DNA from: Saprospiraceae bacterium
Lineage (GTDB): Bacteria; Bacteroidota; Bacteroidia; Chitinophagales; Saprospiraceae
NCBI GenBank assembly: GCA_013214355.1
Contig: JABSSL010000050.1
Coordinates: 1 to 39,320 of the forward strand
DNA: 39,320 nucleotides
Direction of reading: 5' to 3'
A program made the position numbers and the translations under genes. Positions 1-38,022 of the stretch are shown here, one piece after another; within the stretch, counting starts at the first letter, position 1; each line of letters starts with the position of its first letter. The notes under the pieces were generated by a model that worked only from the letters and a program-made list of their open reading frames with translations, had not been told where the DNA came from and did not search any database.

Positions 1-254
1 TTCAAAGGATACAGATAATGTCCTCCAGATCGCCTGGGATCAGCTAGTGGGGCAAATATTTCTAATACGTTCCTCGACATGACTTTTCATGTTAAGGTAA
101 TTCTTTATTTTAAATGCGATCGCCCTGTGGTACCCCAGACAAGCTATCAAATCACCAGAATCAAAGCAAGTCCCAATTTTCCATTAAAAATTCACCCCTA
201 TTAATTATAACCCCTCAATTATTCATTATGCATTCAACATTATCCATTAAAAAG
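1..254. other. Gene-free, AT-rich array flank
   Basis: I see no coding frame or complete tRNA here. The first 160 bases contain short dyads: an ACATGA/TCATGT pair around 79-94, a GCGATCGC palindrome at 117-124, and TGGGG near 49 that could pair with CCCCA near 134. They may be the end of another structured RNA or a terminator of something outside the window. Bases 216-249 carry an AT-rich repeat unit (ATTCATT.. CATTCAACATTATCCATTA) that recurs inverted at 2084-2131 and directly at 2245-2277. Confidence 0.4.
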
Positions 255-328
255 TTGCCCCGACAGGATTCGAACCTGCAACCCTCGGTTTAAAAGACCG
301 ATGCTCTGCGCAATTGAGCCACGAGGCA
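255..328 (-). tRNA. tRNA-Lys (TTT)
   Basis: Full cloverleaf on the minus strand. The acceptor TGCCTCG pairs with CGGGGCA, followed by discriminator A. The D-arm begins GGCTC. The anticodon stem TCGGT/ACCGA closes a CTTTTAA loop, giving anticodon TTT (Lys). The T-arm GCAGG-TTCGAAT-CCTGT is normal. CCA is not encoded. This is the last tRNA of the array in transcription order inside the window. Confidence 0.9.
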
Positions 329-387
329 ATGTGAAGTCGGAATAGTAAAGTTGGAAATCGGAATTTCGTAGCCATTCCGACTAGGGG

Positions 388-460
388 TGGCAATCCGGGA
401 ATCGAACCCTACCCTCTGGTGCTTCAAACCAACGCTCTCGCCCTGTGAGCTAGATTGCCA
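388..460 (-). tRNA. tRNA with GAA anticodon (Phe-like, weak T-stem)
   Basis: The acceptor pairs as TGGCAAT/ATTGCCA, or shifted by one as GGCAATC/GATTGCC. The D-arm is normal (TAGCTCA...GAGC). The anticodon stem TTGGT/ACCAG closes loop TTGAAGC, giving anticodon GAA (Phe). Position 37 is G, where Phe tRNAs normally carry A. The T-arm has the conserved TTCGATT loop but an A-G mismatch in the stem, as if one base were lost. It may be a decaying second Phe gene, or a gene of other identity with a changed loop. Confidence 0.75.
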
Positions 461-474
461 TGAATTAATATTTT

Positions 475-502
475 CAAAATAAAAGCTTGAGACTACAGCT
501 TT
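475..502 (-). terminator. Intrinsic terminator ending the large structured RNA
   Basis: On the minus strand AAAGCT pairs with AGCTTT (482-487/497-502) around a 9-nt loop, followed by TATTTT. It lies just after the last long helix of the structured RNA (507-513/593-599), so it is a natural 3' end. The tract is short, so read-through to the distal tRNAs at 388-460 and 255-328 is possible. Confidence 0.5.
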
Positions 503-1395
503 ATGGGGACATTCTTTCCGTGGATTATGACCGGGTGTGCTAAACCCAGTGTTCCCGCGTTATCCACCCGTTTCTGTCGCCAGAGCGAGGTAAATGTCCA
601 ATGCCGTTGGTGTTCTCTCAAAAGAGAACTACGTCGTGGTTGATCAGCACCTTAGACGTGGCTTGCATAGCGGCTCTGGTGTCCGCGCTTTGCAATTAGA
701 GGGTTGGTTCCCTCGCCATTAACAGGCGTTCCCCGAGGCATGCCTCGAAGCCGGCCTGACCGAATGTGTACCGCCTGAAGTGATCTTGCGGATCCCTTCA
801 GCCCGTATATCGCAACGGGTTTAGGCATCTACTACACCTCGACGCCCGGGACTTGGGCTTACATACATAAGACAGGACTCGAACCTGCATACTCAAGGTT
901 TTCAGCCTTGCTGCTTTCCAATTAGCATACTTTTGCAATAAAAGTTTTTCTGGACATTTAGAAGAAGCGTCCCGGGTGTGGCTCCGTAGATTTTCGCCTA
1001 CAAAATACCAGGCTCCTTCTTGTGGACCTCCCGATCCACGGTATGGCTGGACAACGACCCGTTACCAGGCACCTATCCTTAATACTGGTTGCAGCTACAT
1101 GAAAGAGGATAACTCCCATGCAACCCACAGCCTACAACTTTCCCTATTGATGTCTCCATCTCAATACCGATATCCTTCTCGGTATATGCTGTTCCCGCCA
1201 CCTCAGCGGTCGCCCCTGGTGGCCTGGACCCAACATGTTCGTTGCTTGCTTACTCCAACTCTCTCGAAAGAAAGTCTCCACTATTGTTACTTCAATGAGC
1301 AGATTTATCCCCGTTACCAGGTTTATGTGACGACAGTAAGCTGCCGATGAAAACTAGATGCCAGGGCATAGCCCCAAGCTCTAGTTTTACATTTC
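480..1395 (-). ncRNA. Large ornate structured RNA with embedded tRNA (GOLLD-like candidate)
   Basis: About 900 bases without a plausible gene form a dense run of hairpins. These include 1350-1358/1380-1388 (9 bp), 1331-1336/1341-1346, 1258-1264/1269-1275 (7 bp, UUCG loop on the minus strand), 1197-1202/1218-1223, 1164-1170/1179-1185 (7 bp), 1149-1152/1157-1160 (GAGA tetraloop on the minus strand), 1022-1026/1035-1039, 962-967/1016-1021, 802-806/815-819, 775-780/796-801, 734-747, 699-703/710-714, 612-618/623-629 (7 bp), 520-525/562-567 and 531-536/544-549. A perfect 10-bp helix, 591-600/951-960, encloses tRNA-Phe and most of the distal half. A terminator-like hairpin follows at 482-502. The loop types favour the minus strand, the same as the tRNAs. 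Giant RNAs of the GOLLD and ROOL classes are known next to tRNA arrays, and some GOLLD RNAs carry tRNAs inside. Membership is inferred from architecture and size only. The 5' end is uncertain and may be made by processing of the upstream tRNA-Met. Confidence 0.5.
864..936 (-). tRNA. tRNA-Phe (GAA), embedded in the large structured RNA
   Basis: Cloverleaf with acceptor GCAAAAG/CTTATGT (one A-A mismatch and a terminal G-T pair), discriminator A, D-arm TGCT/AGCA with a GG-containing loop, anticodon stem CAAGG/CCTTG around CTGAAAA (GAA, A37), and T-arm GCAGG-TTCGAGT-CCTGT. It lies between two halves of a hairpin-rich RNA, and the perfect inverted repeat 591-600/951-960 brackets it. It could therefore be presented as a domain of that RNA or be cut out by RNases P and Z. 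Confidence 0.8.
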
Positions 1396-1415
1396 TTATG
1401 TCAAAGAACGACTGG

Positions 1416-1488
1416 ACGCGCAGCTGGGAATCGAACCCAGAATTACAAGCTTATGAGACTTGCGTGTTGCCCTTACATCCACCGCGCG
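1416..1488 (-). tRNA. tRNA-Met (CAT), unusual D-arm
   Basis: The acceptor CGCGCGG pairs with CTGCGCG. The discriminator is T, directly followed by CCA on the minus strand (1413-1415), which may be chance. The anticodon stem CAAGT/GCTTG closes CTCATAA, anticodon CAT. The T-arm CTGGG-TTCGATT-CCCAG is canonical. The D-arm is irregular: only TGT/ACA pair around an AAGGGCA loop. CAT could mean elongator Met or a lysidine-modified Ile tRNA. The C1-G72 pair argues against an ordinary bacterial initiator, which usually has a C1-A72 mismatch. Confidence 0.8.
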
Positions 1489-1493
1489 TATTG

Positions 1494-1567
1494 TCCCGAT
1501 GAGTGGACTCGAACCACTAACCACTCGCGTATCAGGCGAGTACTCTAACCACTTGAGCTACATCGGA
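1494..1567 (-). tRNA. tRNA-Ile (GAT)
   Basis: Regular cloverleaf: acceptor TCCGATG/CATCGGG, discriminator A, D-arm GTAGCTCAAGTGGTTAGAGTA, anticodon stem CTCGC/GCGAG closing CTGATAC (GAT) and T-arm AGTGG-TTCGAGT-CCACT. The terminal T1-G72 wobble is atypical. This is one of the best-preserved members of the array. Confidence 0.9.
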
Positions 1568-1580
1568 ATAATCTGCTAAA

Positions 1581-1643
1581 AGCTGGTACACGGATAAGCT
1601 CTCGATAACAAGTCGAGTACAATGCCGATTATGCTATACCAAC
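1581..1643 (-). tRNA. T-arm-less tRNA-like gene (anticodon TGT)
   Basis: The acceptor GTTGGTA pairs over 7 bp with TACCAGC. T8, A9, A14, G18, G19 and A21 are all present, with D-stem GCA/TGT. A perfect 5-bp anticodon stem CTCGA/TCGAG closes CTTGTTA, which places TGT (Thr codon ACA) at 34-36. Between the anticodon stem and the 3' acceptor strand there are only 12 bases, with no GTTCGAA-type T-loop, against about 22 in a normal class I tRNA. The whole is 62 nt plus discriminator. T37 is abnormal. It is either a pseudogene with a deleted T-arm or a truly minimal tRNA. It sits in register in the array, between Asn and Ile. Confidence 0.5.
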
Positions 1644-1659
1644 GAAAGAACGCCTTTTG

Positions 1660-1732
1660 CGGAAAGGGATGGATTCGAACCATCAACCTTCTGGTTAACA
1701 GCCAGTTGCTCTGCCGATTGAGCTACCAATCC
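1660..1732 (-). tRNA. tRNA-Asn (GTT)
   Basis: The D-arm (TAGCTCAATCGGCAGAGCA), anticodon loop CTGTTAA (GTT) on stem CTGG/CCAG, T-arm GATGG-TTCGAAT-CCATC and discriminator G all fit Asn. The acceptor GGATTGG/CCTTTCC has two adjacent T-T mismatches at 4-69 and 5-68, which is a sign of decay or of RNA editing or tolerance. Confidence 0.85.
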
Positions 1733-1740
1733 GTCTATTA

Positions 1741-1813
1741 GAGCAAGTAGTCGGACTCGAACCGACATCCTCTGGGTGGAAGCCAGGAATTCTACCTTTG
1801 AACTATACTTGCT
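1741..1813 (-). tRNA. tRNA-Gly (TCC)
   Basis: Acceptor AGCAAGT/ACTTGCT, D-arm TATAGTTCAAAGGTAGAA typical of bacterial Gly tRNAs, anticodon stem CTGG/CCAG closing CTTCCAC (TCC), and T-arm GTCGG-TTCGAGT-CCGAC. The first pair A1-T72 is unusual, because most bacterial Gly tRNAs start with G1-C72. The outermost anticodon stem pair is a C-A mismatch. Confidence 0.85.
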
Positions 1814-1845
1814 TAAAACTAGAAATCAATAAGTCCTTCTAACTG

Positions 1846-1932
1846 CGGAAGAGGTGGGAGTCGAACCCACACGAGCCGTTAACTCCTAACTGTTTTCAAG
1901 ACAGCGGCCACCGCCGGTTGGCTTGCTCTTCC
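1846..1932 (-). tRNA. tRNA-Ser (TGA)
   Basis: Class II tRNA with acceptor GGAAGAG/CTCTTCC, discriminator G (normal for Ser), anticodon stem GCTGT/ACAGT closing CTTGAAA (TGA), a long variable region around TAGGAGTTAACGGCTCG, and T-arm GTGGG-TTCGACT-CCCAC. Length 87 nt. Well preserved. Confidence 0.92.
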
Positions 1933-1998
1933 AAAAAGCGAGCGCGTGATTAGATTGTTATTTCACTTTAACTAGAGGGTCTTTTTTGATTTAATTTG

Positions 1999-2072
1999 TA
2001 CCTGTCGAGAGATTTGAACTCCCACTCACTTGCTTCTAAAACAAGCCGCTTTTCCGGTTAGCGCAGACAGGT
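1999..2072 (-). tRNA. Class I tRNA with anticodon TAG
   Basis: Good cloverleaf: acceptor ACCTGTC/GACAGGT, discriminator A, D-arm CGCT/AGCG, anticodon stem CTTGT/GCAAG closing TTTAGAA (anticodon TAG, complementary to the Leu codon CTA), variable region of only 5 nt (TGAGT), and T-arm GGGAG-TTCAAAT-CTCTC. Bacterial Leu tRNAs are class II with a long variable arm, so a Leu identity is doubtful. The gene may be charged with another amino acid, may be a drifted copy of another isoacceptor, or may be inactive. Confidence 0.8.
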
Positions 2073-2074
2073 AG

Positions 2075-2281
2075 TTGTAATTTTTAATGTTGAATGAACA
2101 ATGGATAATGTTGAATGAAGGATGGATAATATAGGTGGTAAAAGATTGATTACCTGGGGATATACTCAAAGAAAGAGAGAAACGCGTTTCAATAGTTTTC
2201 CTTGGTTTTTTGGTGCATACCCCTCCAGTAATCACCTACCTTTCCAATTATTCATTAAACATTATCAACTATACATTACAA
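2075..2281. mobile_element. MITE-like palindromic element between tRNA genes
   Basis: The ends TTGTAAT (2075-2081) and ATTACAA (2275-2281) are inverted repeats. Both arms stay alignable across the element: the GATTACC..GGGGATATAC motif on the left matches the complement of GTATACCCC-like sequence with GTAATC on the right. The centre is the perfect palindrome GAAACGCGTTTC (2179-2190). The flanks read TAG on both sides, fitting a 3-bp target duplication. No transposase or coding sequence is present. Inserted between tRNA-Asp and the TAG tRNA. Confidence 0.5.
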
Positions 2282-2284
2282 TAG

Positions 2285-2357
2285 CGGTGACGACGAGACT
2301 CGAACTCGCAATCTTCGGATAGACAATCCGCTGCCCTAGCCATTAGGCCACGCCACC
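2285..2357 (-). tRNA. tRNA-Asp (GTC)
   Basis: Acceptor GGTGGCG/CGTCACC, discriminator G as expected for Asp, D-arm GGCCTAATGGCTAGGGC, anticodon arm CGGA/TCCG closing TTGTCTA (GTC), and T-arm GCGAG-TTCGAGT-CTCGT. T37 is unusual for Asp. It is the first tRNA of the array in transcription order, so the array promoter should lie above 2357. Confidence 0.88.
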
Positions 2358-35725: not shown

Positions 35726-35794
35726 CTGTCGCATTGGTGATTTATGCTCTAATGAAATTCGGTTCTTCAACAAGGATCGTACTCAAAGAAGGAT

Positions 35795-35945
35795 AAATCT
35801 TAAAAGGGAATCCGGTGTGAATCCGGAGCAGTCCCCGCTGCTGTAAGTTCCAATTAACATTTTCAATAGGTAAGCCACTGCCTTAACTAAAGTAGAAAGG
35901 TGGGAAGGCATTGAAAATGGAACGAGCCAGAAGACCTGCCAAAGC
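35795..35945 (+). promoter_or_regulatory. Cobalamin riboswitch
   Basis: Contains GGTGTGAATCCGGAGC, CAGTCCCCGCTGCTGTAAG, GCCACTG, GGGAAGGC and the B12 box GAGCCAGAAGACCTGCC (35924-35940), in the standard order and spacing. It is followed by about 180 nt of leader to the receptor start. Adenosyl- or other cobalamin binding would turn off the TonB-dependent receptor operon. The 5' boundary of the P1 stem is approximate. Confidence 0.95.
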
Positions 35946-36123
35946 AATTCGCCAATAAATTGAGGCTTTCGGAGGAAAAGTCGGCGGTAGATGAATATTT
36001 TCTGTTATAGCATGCCTTGCTATAGCAGCTAACTTGGTCCATGGTAGTGGTTCCATACTACTATGTCTATCCATTCCTACATCTATCCGGCCTTCCTGTC
36101 CGCCTCTTCAAAGGACTGGGATC

Positions 36124-38022
36124 ATGAGGCTGAATCTACGCCTACTTTTTGTTCTGTATTTTGCTTGCCTACTGAGCGCTATCCATGCTCAGGTAGATAC
36201 CAGTCTTATACTGCCCACTTTAGAAGTAAGAAAGACGCGCCTAGGTACAAGCACCATCGGAAGTCAGAACCTGGAATGGAATACTACACAACTCCAGGGG
36301 CGATCATTTCAGAACTTGACCAGTCTTTTGGAGCAAGAGGCTGGGATCTACATGAAAAGTTACGGCCTAGGTAGTTTAGCTACCTCCTCTATTCGGGGAG
36401 GCAGTGCCGGTCATACGCTGATTCTTTGGAATGGGCTTCCTATTCAAAGTCCGATGCTTGGCCTATTAGATCTTTCGCTCTTACCCCTGCAAAGCATGGA
36501 CCATATCCATGTACAACGAGGAGGAAATACCGCTTTGTGGGGTAGTGGAGCCGTTGGAGGAATCATTTCCTTGGATAATGAAGCTCATGCTGAAAAAGGG
36601 TTTCGCATAAGTAGTCAATCTTCTTTTGGCAGTTTTGGAAACTTTCAGCAAAACTTTGATTTATCCGTCGGTAATAAGCACTGGCAGAGTCGCACCCGGT
36701 TCTCTTTTCAAGAAGCAACCAATGATTTCTACTATGATATCGCACCCGGATTTCCCCAGCGACAGCAAACTAATGCGGCTTTGCTTCAACACAACTTCAA
36801 TCAAGATGTCTATTGGAAACCTTCCAAAAAGCAACAAATAGCTCTCCATTATTGGAGACAATTTTCAGATCGTCAAATCCCACCTACCAATACACAGACT
36901 CGAAGTGAAGCTTACCAGCTTGACCGATCAGATCGTTTGGTGTTGGAATGGCGCAAAGTCAACGATAAGTCTGTTTACCAAGCCAAGTTGGCTGGCTTTG
37001 ATGAAGATTTGCAATTTTTTGATCCGCAAATCCAGCTGAAATCTCCAAGTCATTTCTATAGTCTAATTGGAGAGTTTAGTGGGCAGTGGTATGGGAAAAA
37101 TGGTTACCAACTATTAGCCGGCTATACTCAAACCTATAATCGGGCACAGTCTAACGGCTATCAGGCCAATGAGCAGGAAAGTCGATCTGCTCTTTTTACT
37201 TCCATCGTGCAACGCAAATCTAGATGGGAATGGCAACTTAGCTTGAGACAGGCCCTCGTTGACGGTGTGTTCATCCCCTTAGTTCCTACCCTAGCTGGTC
37301 AATACCAGATTCTGCCCAACCTAAGGATTAAGGGAAAGCTAAGTCGAAATTATCGCCTACCAACACTCAATGATAGATTTTGGCGGCCTGGTGGAAATCC
37401 CGATCTCAAGGCAGAATCCGGCTGGAGTGAAGAGCTTACGCTCGAAAGTAGTTGGAGCAATAACGTGTTTGCCATTAGTGGCTCTCTTACAGGCTTCAAT
37501 AGACAAATTGACAATTGGATTTTATGGAGCATTCGCAGTGGACAGAGTTTTTGGTCCGCCAATAACATAGCTGCTGTTTGGAGTAGAGGATTGGAGCCTA
37601 GGTTGAACTTATCTTATCAGCTATCTGAGCTCCGTTTTCAGTTGCAGTTGGGATATGACTATACGCGCTCCACCAACCAAATTGCTCTAGAGAACCCTAG
37701 AATAGCTGCAGGGGAACAGCTCTTATATACTCCTATTCACCAAGGCTTCGGCAACCTGCAGCTGAGCTGGCAATCCTTGCAAGTGAATTATCATCATCGA
37801 TTTGTTGGAGCCTCGCAGGGTATTAATGACCCGCTGGCAGCATTTGATATTGGCCGAGTTAACCTTCAGTATCACCTATCCGAGGAAAAAGCCGAAAGCC
37901 ACCTCTTCTTTCAGGTCAACAACATTTGGGATCGTACCTATTTGGTGGTCGAGCGAAGACCTATGCCAGGGATAAACTATCAATTCGGAATTAAACTATC
38001 ATTCTACAATAAACAATTATGA
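36124..38022 (+). CDS. TonB-dependent receptor, probable vitamin B12 transporter (BtuB-like)
   Basis: 632 aa from the ATG at 36124, which yields the signal peptide MRLNLRLLFVLYFACLLSAI..HAQ; the frame is open 90 bp upstream without a signal. The plug domain (residues about 45-150) has SLLEQEAGIYMKSYGLGSLATSSIRGGSAGHTL, WNGLPIQSPMLG and RGGNTALWGSGAVGGII. The 22-strand barrel follows. Under cobalamin riboswitch control, so the substrate is most likely B12 or another corrinoid. The stop TGA overlaps the ATG of the next gene (ATGA), coupling translation. Confidence 0.94.
   Translation: MRLNLRLLFVLYFACLLSAIHAQVDTSLILPTLEVRKTRLGTSTIGSQNLEWNTTQLQGRSFQNLTSLLEQEAGIYMKSYGLGSLATSSIRGGSAGHTLILWNGLPIQSPMLGLLDLSLLPLQSMDHIHVQRGGNTALWGSGAVGGIISLDNEAHAEKGFRISSQSSFGSFGNFQQNFDLSVGNKHWQSRTRFSFQEATNDFYYDIAPGFPQRQQTNAALLQHNFNQDVYWKPSKKQQIALHYWRQFSDRQIPPTNTQTRSEAYQLDRSDRLVLEWRKVNDKSVYQAKLAGFDEDLQFFDPQIQLKSPSHFYSLIGEFSGQWYGKNGYQLLAGYTQTYNRAQSNGYQANEQESRSALFTSIVQRKSRWEWQLSLRQALVDGVFIPLVPTLAGQYQILPNLRIKGKLSRNYRLPTLNDRFWRPGGNPDLKAESGWSEELTLESSWSNNVFAISGSLTGFNRQIDNWILWSIRSGQSFWSANNIAAVWSRGLEPRLNLSYQLSELRFQLQLGYDYTRSTNQIALENPRIAAGEQLLYTPIHQGFGNLQLSWQSLQVNYHHRFVGASQGINDPLAAFDIGRVNLQYHLSEEKAESHLFFQVNNIWDRTYLVVERRPMPGINYQFGIKLSFYNKQL

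What the first reader, a model, noticed from the sequence alone, without database searches (positions are those of the whole stretch)
480..1395. Giant ornate RNA candidate inside a tRNA array, with a tRNA-Phe embedded
About 900 bases hold more than fifteen perfect or near-perfect hairpins, including UUCG and GNRA-type (GAGA) loops that are correct only on the minus strand, and no gene. A tRNA-Phe lies in the middle, bracketed by the helix 591-600/951-960, and a terminator closes the unit. GOLLD and ROOL RNAs, among the largest bacterial non-coding RNAs, are known for lying next to tRNA arrays and, in GOLLD, for harbouring tRNAs. A member in a Bacteroidota chromosome, or a new class, would be worth describing. 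The class assignment is by architecture only.
Basis: partly seen in the sequence, partly recalled or inferred. Interest (0 to 1): 0.85.

Follow-up and report, generated by a model that had tools for sequence, protein, structure and literature searches.

The report
GOLLD cage RNA carrying tRNA mimic
The stretch encodes a GOLLD RNA, of a kind known to build hollow RNA cages, with a tRNA look-alike in the loop that should face the inside; in related bacteria the look-alike is wired in scrambled order and the gene often sits near machinery that repairs broken tRNA and ribosomes, which gives a testable idea of what these cages are for.

Summary
Window 482-1409 (minus strand) encodes a GOLLD RNA: RF02032 matches 484-1020 end to end (119.1 bits, E 2e-32; under the 150-bit cut-off, so a default scan misses it). 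Among 15 aligned copies, 155 of 234 predicted pairs show compensatory double changes, 5' domain included. The tRNA-Phe-like element lies in the model's variable linker, which cryo-EM of another GOLLD places inside the 14-mer cage.

New here: the linker is a tRNA-like cassette. Twenty of 26 Saprospiria-type copies hold one in normal order, with changing and often broken anticodon loops. Twenty-two of 26 flavobacterial copies hold the parts circularly permuted (T arm, closed acceptor stem, D arm), the order of YrlA Y RNAs. In 10 of 19 flavobacterial genomes an RtcB RNA ligase lies within 10 kb; PrfH, Rnl2 ligase or Ro60 occur at some loci. No such gene was found beside the window's copy, whose contig ends nearby.

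I infer that GOLLD presents tRNA mimics within a response to damaged tRNA or ribosomes. Identity is firm; function is inference, and no expression data were available.

The parts
482..1409 (-). GOLLD RNA, whole unit (5' end at the higher coordinate), about 930 nt
   Evidence: RF02032 match plus conserved 5' domain in 15 aligned copies; ends inferred from conservation, no transcript data
1400..1409 (-). boxA-like GTTCTTTGAC at the RNA's 5' start, 3 nt behind tRNA-Met
   Evidence: position; motif of this type in 39 of 52 copies, in 36 of them 379-420 nt before the 3' domain; GTTC[AT]TTGA occurs 0.062 times per kb in all loci
1021..1399 (-). 5' domain of GOLLD (not in the Rfam model)
   Evidence: aligned and covarying in 15 copies
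484..1020 (-). 3' domain of GOLLD (Rfam RF02032, model 1-416)
   Evidence: 119.1 bits, E 2e-32; gathering score 150 not reached
959..1020 (-). first hairpin of the 3' domain (about model positions 1-62)
   Evidence: cmscan alignment
864..936 (-). tRNA-Phe(GAA)-like element in the variable linker; one acceptor mismatch, U10-A25 in the D stem
   Evidence: the nearest relative has a different tRNA-like element there
593..599 (-). 5' strand of the supported long-range helix GGACAUU
   Evidence: 7 of 7 pairs with double changes
507..513 (-). 3' strand of the supported long-range helix AAUGUCC
   Evidence: Rfam structure
482..502 (-). conserved last hairpin with loop GUAGUCUCA, followed by a T-rich tail
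   Evidence: no terminator called there
1413..1488 (-). tRNA-Met(CAT) directly upstream of GOLLD
385..460 (-). tRNA-Phe(GAA) directly downstream of GOLLD
254..328 (-). tRNA-Lys(TTT), last tRNA of the array on this contig
1493..2357 (-). rest of the tRNA array: Ile, Asn, Gly, Ser, Leu, Asp

Best explanation
The element is a GOLLD RNA of a Lewinella-like member of Bacteroidota, apparently chromosomal. It is probably transcribed as part of the tRNA array (a tRNA ends 3 nt before its boxA-like start and another begins about 21 nt after its end) and freed by tRNA-processing nucleases. By homology it should assemble into the GOLLD 14-mer cage. Its linker, which in the solved GOLLD lies inside the cage, carries a tRNA-like element that acts as a tRNA mimic rather than as a decoding tRNA: D arm, T arm and most of the acceptor stem are kept in most relatives, while the anticodon loop and even the anticodon arm are free to change. 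I think the cage presents many copies of a tRNA mimic to enzymes that cut, process or repair tRNA, as a bait or holding site used when tRNAs or ribosomes are damaged, together with the spare tRNAs and, in many Flavobacteriaceae, RNA ligases encoded nearby. Shown: identity, structure, linker contents, neighbourhood. Inferred: transcription, processing, cage formation, mimic function.
For: Identity: RF02032 E 2e-32, full length. Relatives: 14 of 150 same-family genomes, the own one included (17 places), and 43 of 44 loci from a DNA pattern scan, Bacteroidota by their record titles. Covariation: 155 of 234 pairs.

Mimic: 19 of 52 unique copies parse automatically as normal-order tRNA-like, L006 by ARAGORN; only 10 of those 19 have a 7-nt anticodon loop with U33. 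The 20 embedded elements are 0.68-0.77 identical to the nearest array tRNA of any locus and 0.71-0.90 to the nearest other embedded one, while 60 sampled array tRNAs find a median 0.93 relative in other loci. The window's core is 94.7% identical to that of its nearest relative L020, the tRNA only 66.7%.

Permuted form: 20 of 22 flavobacterial linkers given fit fixed anchors, 2 more anchored by hand. Acceptor pairing is 4.95 of 7 within a species against 2.93 between species (none of 20,000 permutations as high) and 2.55 in shuffles; 69.5% of cells against 47.1-57.1% when slid. ACC at the acceptor end in 15 of 22, CCA in 14 of 22, whereas 10 of 187 tRNAs at the same loci encode CCA. A viral GOLLD (L076, 138.2 bits) has the same order with a 7-bp acceptor stem and GCCA.

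Neighbourhood: RtcB within 10 kb in 10 of 19 flavobacterial GOLLD genomes; PrfH in 3 of 3 islands checked for it, chosen for having two RtcB genes; Rnl2-type ligase; Ro60 (TROVE) beside a Saprospiraceae copy.
Against: No expression, processing or assembly data. The repair genes lie near flavobacterial copies, not the window's: none of the repair-island proteins used as queries hits the window, and the own genome's RtcB genes are on other contigs. Of 19 flavobacterial genomes 5 have no RtcB, and in 4 it is far away or on another contig. Of four 20-kb regions first taken, two (L091, L092) showed no repair gene in the 4 and 5 ORFs scanned. In Saprospiraceae, repair-type genes were seen at 2 of 8 loci, with 20 of 36 ORFs scanned. 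Slid versions of the permuted acceptor stem also have double changes in 6-7 of 7 pairs, so those changes by themselves say little. Seven of 51 copies carry no full tRNA-like element, and a T-loop motif was found in only 2 of 18 viral contigs (several near-identical), so the mimic is not essential to GOLLD. The window's own element has a regular GAA loop and 59.3 bits as a tRNA, so it could be a working tRNA; folded alone it does not give the cloverleaf (z 0.36). YrlA matches in linkers are weak (21.7-30.9 bits, cut-off 69).
Confidence: 0.4

Rival explanations
1. Processing site: the tRNA-like element is there to be cut. RNase P and the 3' tRNA nucleases cleave at it, removing the tRNA (normal order) or opening the acceptor loop (permuted order), so that GOLLD becomes a two-piece RNA like permuted tmRNA.
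For: What is kept in the permuted forms (T loop, D arm, acceptor stem, ACC at its end) is what RNase P is known to read (recalled), and the anticodon arm is dispensable. A weak match to permuted tmRNA in the L076 linker (19.2 bits, cut-off 47).
Against: The first acceptor base is not a consistent G, acceptor ends are often mismatched (pair 7 is standard in 8 of 22), and none of the 19 parsed normal-order copies encodes CCA. In the 9 flavobacterial loci scanned the permuted-tmRNA matches lie outside the linkers. No cleavage data.
Confidence: 0.22
2. Tolerated passenger: the linker is a loop without function that accepts insertions, and tRNA pieces from the neighbouring array land there and decay.
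For: Copies without any tRNA exist; the cassette is replaced fast; anticodon loops decay; tandem tRNA arrays offer the raw material, a 3' half followed by a 5' half; slid acceptor stems also show double changes.
Against: Acceptor strands pair better within than between species; T and D arms kept after loss of the anticodon arm; little similarity to array tRNAs; the permuted order is also seen in a viral GOLLD and with a Leu-like body in L050.
Confidence: 0.24
3. Working tRNA carried by a phage-derived RNA: the embedded tRNA-Phe is processed out and used in translation, and GOLLD is a relic of a phage tRNA island.
For: GOLLDs occur in viral contigs with tRNAs; an integrase lies near one array (L030); the window's element has GAA, U33 and 59.3 bits.
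Against: The four window ORFs beside the array scanned in Pfam show no phage gene (the other ORFs were only read by eye); no hit of two clade patterns in viral contigs; 9 of 19 parsed sister elements lack a 7-nt loop with U33.
Confidence: 0.12

Closest known systems
GOLLD RNA (Rfam RF02032)
   Same: Full 3' domain, separate 5' domain, about 930 nt, tRNA array, tRNA in the linker; tRNAs in GOLLD linkers are already reported (PMC12286853, sections 7-9 read; PMC6582537, passages).
   Different: Scores 119 bits, under the curated cut-off, as do 19 of 19 flavobacterial genomes searched; apparently chromosomal Bacteroidota lineage; linker cassette permuted in most flavobacterial copies.
YrlA bacterial Y RNA (RF02553)
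   Same: Order T arm, closed acceptor hairpin, UA, D arm in the Rfam model equals that of the flavobacterial linkers; in some bacteria encoded in RNA repair operons with RtcB (PMC7790460, PMC8394870, passages).
   Different: Linkers score far under the cut-off, sit in GOLLD, about half have an anticodon arm and many an ACC(A) end; Ro60 in 1 of 20 genomes searched, 61 kb from GOLLD. The window's copy is in normal order.
Permuted tmRNA (RF04321) and permuted tRNA genes
   Same: 3' half encoded before the 5' half, with the acceptor end between them.
   Different: No tag peptide identified; weak matches only, in one linker (L076) and in elements outside linkers. A 2014 review lists permuted tRNA in archaea and algae and none in bacteria (PMC4033280, passages); the elements here are not shown to become tRNAs.
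ROOL RNA
   Same: Large ornate RNA near tRNAs, cage-forming (PMC12286853, passages on ROOL).
   Different: No ROOL match in 330-1700 at E up to 10.
GOLLD in Mycobacterium tRNA arrays
   Same: tRNA gene cluster with GOLLD and a pseudo tRNA inside it (PMC6582537, passages).
   Different: Another phylum; there reported with an HNH endonuclease; no permuted element mentioned in the passages seen.

Membership tests
GOLLD | Homology over the whole covariance model of the universally conserved 3' region | tested here: met
   RF02032 1-416 of 416, E 2e-32. A published survey took E 1e-5 as its limit (PMC12286853, methods passage). The Rfam gathering score of 150 bits, a database cut-off, is not reached (119.1).
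GOLLD | Structure kept by compensatory change | tested here: met
   155 of 234 pairs; long-range Rfam helix 7 of 7
GOLLD | Separate, less conserved 5' domain, total over 800 nt | tested here: met
   5' domain aligns in 15 Saprospiria-type copies; equivalence to the 5' domain of the solved GOLLD was not tested
GOLLD | Lies near tRNAs | tested here: met
GOLLD | 14-mer cage | not testable with these tools
   known for one GOLLD, env-38 (PMC12286853)
GOLLD | Encoded by phage or prophage | tested here: inconclusive
   no phage gene in 4 window ORFs scanned; not a defining feature, as it is also reported in mycobacterial tRNA clusters
ROOL | Match to the ROOL covariance model | tested here: not met
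   not among matches at E up to 10 in 330-1700
YrlA | Match to RF02553 over its cut-off | tested here: not met
   flavobacterial linkers 24.3-30.9 bits in 6 of 9, L076 21.7, cut-off 69; none in window 330-1700
YrlA | Order T arm, closed acceptor hairpin, D arm | tested here: met
   22 flavobacterial linkers against the model; not met by the window's copy, which is in normal order
YrlA | Ro60 (TROVE) partner gene | tested here: inconclusive
   1 of 20 genomes; beside GOLLD in L056
working tRNA | Complete cloverleaf with decodable anticodon loop | tested here: inconclusive
   window: 6 of 7 acceptor pairs, 7-nt loop GAA, MFE fold not a cloverleaf; 9 of 19 parsed elements lack a 7-nt loop with U33

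The most novel reading that the evidence does not exclude
GOLLD is an RNA counterpart of the Ro60-Y RNA particle: an RNA-only cage that holds tRNA mimics inside and belongs to a defence against damage of tRNAs and ribosomes. In many Flavobacteriaceae it is part of islands with a tRNA array, RtcB ligases, PrfH and Rnl2 ligase, and its mimic has been rewired into the permuted Y-RNA order, an order seen also, perhaps by separate origin, in a viral GOLLD.
Probability: 0.25. Interest if true: 0.87.

Novelty: new variant of a known kind. Interest (0 to 1): 0.65.

Why it matters
What GOLLD cages do is unknown. A lineage that the standard cut-off hides, whose presumably lumen-facing linker is a fast-changing tRNA-like cassette, and which in about half of the flavobacterial genomes searched sits near an RNA ligase, turns that question into a concrete test in culturable marine bacteria (Winogradskyella, Maribacter and Dokdonia strains are in the set). 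It also ties GOLLD to Y RNAs and permuted tmRNA by shared architecture.

Tried and rejected
ROOL or another known class: not found, only GOLLD. New class: rejected. Bracketing helix 951-960/591-600: second to the Rfam helix, though above its slid controls. Terminator at the 3' end: not supported. Protein-coding: rejected. Close phage or plasmid relatives: none by blastn and none with two clade patterns in viral contigs; more general patterns found 18 and 1 viral contigs (L093 was not analysed). 'First permuted tRNA in bacteria': dropped as a headline once the YrlA model proved to have the same order. Ro60 as the general partner: 1 of 20. PADLOC: of 8 proteins only the WYL regulator matched. 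16S leader in the own genome for the boxA comparison: none found, nor in G062; leaders of three relatives were used. Literature: I saw nothing on permuted or Y-RNA-like elements in GOLLD, or on GOLLD with RtcB, in the listings of the ten searches, some of them cut (30 of 39 papers shown, 10 of 35, 5 of 128). The library holds open-licence papers only; the 2009 discovery paper and the 2020 Mycobacterium GOLLD paper are not held and were not read.

Rows dropped: 8 duplicate loci and L032 (unconfirmed) before the 52 copies; L042 (truncated) before the tree; three misparsed linkers (L025, L027, L051) before the first pairing test; L025, L038, L042 and L055 were not given, and L027 and L051 failed the anchors; the last two were added by hand.

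Full report
Identity. A default Rfam scan of the window lists tRNAs (one as tRNA-Sec) and a cobalamin riboswitch only. With an E-value threshold, 484-1020 on the minus strand matches RF02032 (GOLLD) from first to last model position at 119.1 bits, E 2e-32; the curated cut-off is 150 bits. The tRNA-Phe-like element is an insertion in the long unpaired linker after the first hairpin of the model. In the cryo-EM structure of another GOLLD a linker of this region is disordered and points into a closed 14-mer cage (PMC12286853, sections 7-9 read). That the two linkers correspond is my inference from their place in the RNA.

Distribution. In the host's family 14 of 150 genomes have GOLLD, the own one included (17 places, 5 genomes over the cut-off). 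Two wider draws found only genomes of that family: 2 of 149 in the order (the own genome and G066) and 1 of 148 in the phylum (the own genome). A pattern taken from the family's conserved core hit 44 loci in named genomes; 43 were confirmed by nhmmer, by their titles in Saprospiraceae, Lewinella, Flavobacteriaceae genera and a Crocinitomix, 12 of the 43 on contigs over 500 kb. Nineteen of 19 of these genomes searched have exactly one GOLLD, at 115-139 bits, none over the cut-off (one of 20 handles was not held). This lineage is thus hidden by the default threshold. The nearest relative of the window's copy is from an uncultured Lewinella (L020).

Structure. Fifteen Saprospiria-type RNAs, the window included, were aligned from about the end of the upstream tRNA to the 3' end. 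RNAalifold predicts 234 pairs, 155 with a double change. The 5' domain is conserved. The distance from the upstream tRNA to the 3' domain is 386-427 nt in 13 of the 14 copies of this clade with a tRNA upstream (461 in L015). The RNA starts with a boxA-like GTTC(A/T)TTGA. A slightly broader motif was found in 39 of 52 copies, in 36 of them 379-420 nt before the 3' domain (two of the 52 search windows were mis-set and gave none); GTTC[AT]TTGA occurs 0.062 times per kb over all loci. Of three 16S leaders looked at, that of Dokdonia carries GTTCATTGACATATT, that of Psychroserpens GTTCATTAACATATTG, and that of Allomuricauda a looser GTTCATATACATATTG. Calling this a boxA, a signal that lets polymerase finish long untranslated RNAs, rests on recall. 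GTTCTTTGAA lies upstream of 9 of 18 viral GOLLD contigs.

The linker cassette. Of 26 Saprospiria-type copies, 19 parse automatically as normal-order tRNA-like elements, L006 is called tRNA-Trp by ARAGORN, and 6 have none. Anticodon loops differ from copy to copy; loops of 6 or 8 nt and loops without U33 occur; 10 of 19 have a 7-nt loop with U33. Some have a Ser or Leu anticodon on a body without the long variable arm (L011, L012, L019). The elements are not close copies of array tRNAs. Between the window and L020 the core is 94.7% identical and the tRNA 66.7%, so the cassette has been exchanged or has changed fast.

The permuted form. Of 26 flavobacterial copies (one of them Crocinitomix), 22 hold a T arm, the acceptor 3' strand, a short loop, the acceptor 5' strand, UA or similar, a D arm and, in about half by my reading, an anticodon arm. 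Two (L038, L055) are in normal order by my reading, L025 has a T arm only, L042 is truncated. The acceptor strands pair within a species (4.95 of 7) better than between species (2.93) or in shuffles (2.55). Standard pairs fill 69.5% of cells against 47.1-57.1% when slid; double changes occur in 7 of 7 pairs (47 cells), but also in 6-7 of 7 pairs of the slid versions (38, 30 and 16 cells), so they add little. MFE folding of single linkers gives all four arms for L029, L061 and L076, all but the T arm for L053 and L024, and only T arm and acceptor for L050; 0 to 41 of 200 shuffles fold as well. In a tree of cores the permuted copies fall in one flavobacterial clade that also holds L038 and L055. 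L050, sister of L060, has a Leu-like D arm and is still permuted. A viral contig (L076, 93 kb, many tRNAs and a tmRNA) has a GOLLD of 138.2 bits with a permuted element, a 7-bp acceptor stem and GCCA; whether its order arose separately was not tested.

Relation to Y RNAs. The Rfam model of YrlA has the same order. YrlA matches far under the cut-off occur in 6 of 9 flavobacterial linkers scanned (E 0.0098 to 0.83) and in L076 (E 0.082), and as separate elements 3' of GOLLD in 7 of 9 loci (best 41.0 bits, E 1.2e-5); some overlap tRNA-like hits and could be tRNA debris. [quoted passage not shown] the authors suggest it may inhibit an anticodon nuclease (PMC8394870 and PMC7790460, passages).

Neighbourhood. 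Of four 20-kb regions first examined, two (L089, L090) carry RtcB with, variously, Rnl2-type RNA ligase, an AlkB-type oxygenase, R2K ATP-grasp enzymes, WYL regulator and DUF3825; L091 and L092 showed no repair gene in the 4 and 5 ORFs scanned. RtcB is within 10 kb of GOLLD in 10 of 19 genomes, far or on another contig in 4, absent in 5. In three further islands, chosen because two RtcB genes were near, PrfH is present over its NCBIfam cut-off; RtcB2-PrfH is reported to protect E. coli from colicin E3 (PMC9223846, title and start of abstract in the listing). In Saprospiraceae, Ro60 lies beside GOLLD in L056, and the Tpt1 RNA 2'-phosphotransferase and an integrase near it in L030, that is 2 of 8 loci with 20 of 36 ORFs scanned. 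The window has no such gene in the flank on hand; its contig ends 480 bases downstream of GOLLD, and the own genome's RtcB genes are on other contigs, one beside a WYL gene.

Interpretation. Identity and architecture are well supported. Function is inferred from what the cassette keeps (D and T arms, acceptor stem, its ACC end) and drops (decoding), and from where many relatives sit. A tRNA mimic held in a cage, serving a response to damaged tRNAs or ribosomes, is the reading I favour. A processing site or a tolerated passenger are serious rivals, and the three cannot be told apart without experiments.

Noticed in passing
window 35743-35957 (+): Cobalamin riboswitch (98.2 bits) just upstream of a 662-aa ORF at 36034-38022 that looks like an outer-membrane receptor (not tested).
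   Followed up: no
window 1581-1643 (-): Degenerate tRNA-like stretch (27.0 bits, under the 29-bit cut-off) between tRNA-Ile and tRNA-Asn.
   Followed up: no
L003, L016, L056 (one contig of G033): Two GOLLD RNAs of different clades 1.3 kb apart in one tRNA array; a Ro60 (TROVE) gene lies at L056:3725-5305, about 250 nt behind the second.
   Followed up: partly
L035:4029-4118, L041:1021-1132, L036:3459-3564, L029:1348-1431, L048:2144-2228, L053:5796-5856, L024:5694-5815: Separate YrlA-like matches under the cut-off just 3' of GOLLD, partly overlapping tRNA-like hits.
   Followed up: no
L090:7662-9503, L096:14307-16139, L097:5434-7266: A protein of 610-613 aa near GOLLD, 86-87% conserved in three genera. 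The L090 copy has no match in Pfam and PADLOC, the L096 copy none in Pfam, PADLOC and NCBIfam.
   Followed up: partly
18 of 26 flavobacterial loci, for example L040, and L089:7905-9005: A Band_7/SPFH protein, mostly 71-79% identical, is a frequent neighbour of GOLLD in Flavobacteriaceae.
   Followed up: partly
L071-L088 (viral contigs): Nine of 18 viral GOLLD contigs have the boxA-like GTTCTTTGAA upstream of the RNA, as many Bacteroidota copies do.
   Followed up: no
L030:5827-7242 and 1388-1933: Phage-type integrase and Tpt1/KptA RNA 2'-phosphotransferase on either side of a GOLLD tRNA array, with a QueG-type gene at 380-1162.
   Followed up: no
L047, L051, L053: ARAGORN calls a tRNA-Tyr with anticodon ATA upstream of GOLLD in two Winogradskyella, and a tRNA-Phe with AAA in L053.
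   Followed up: no
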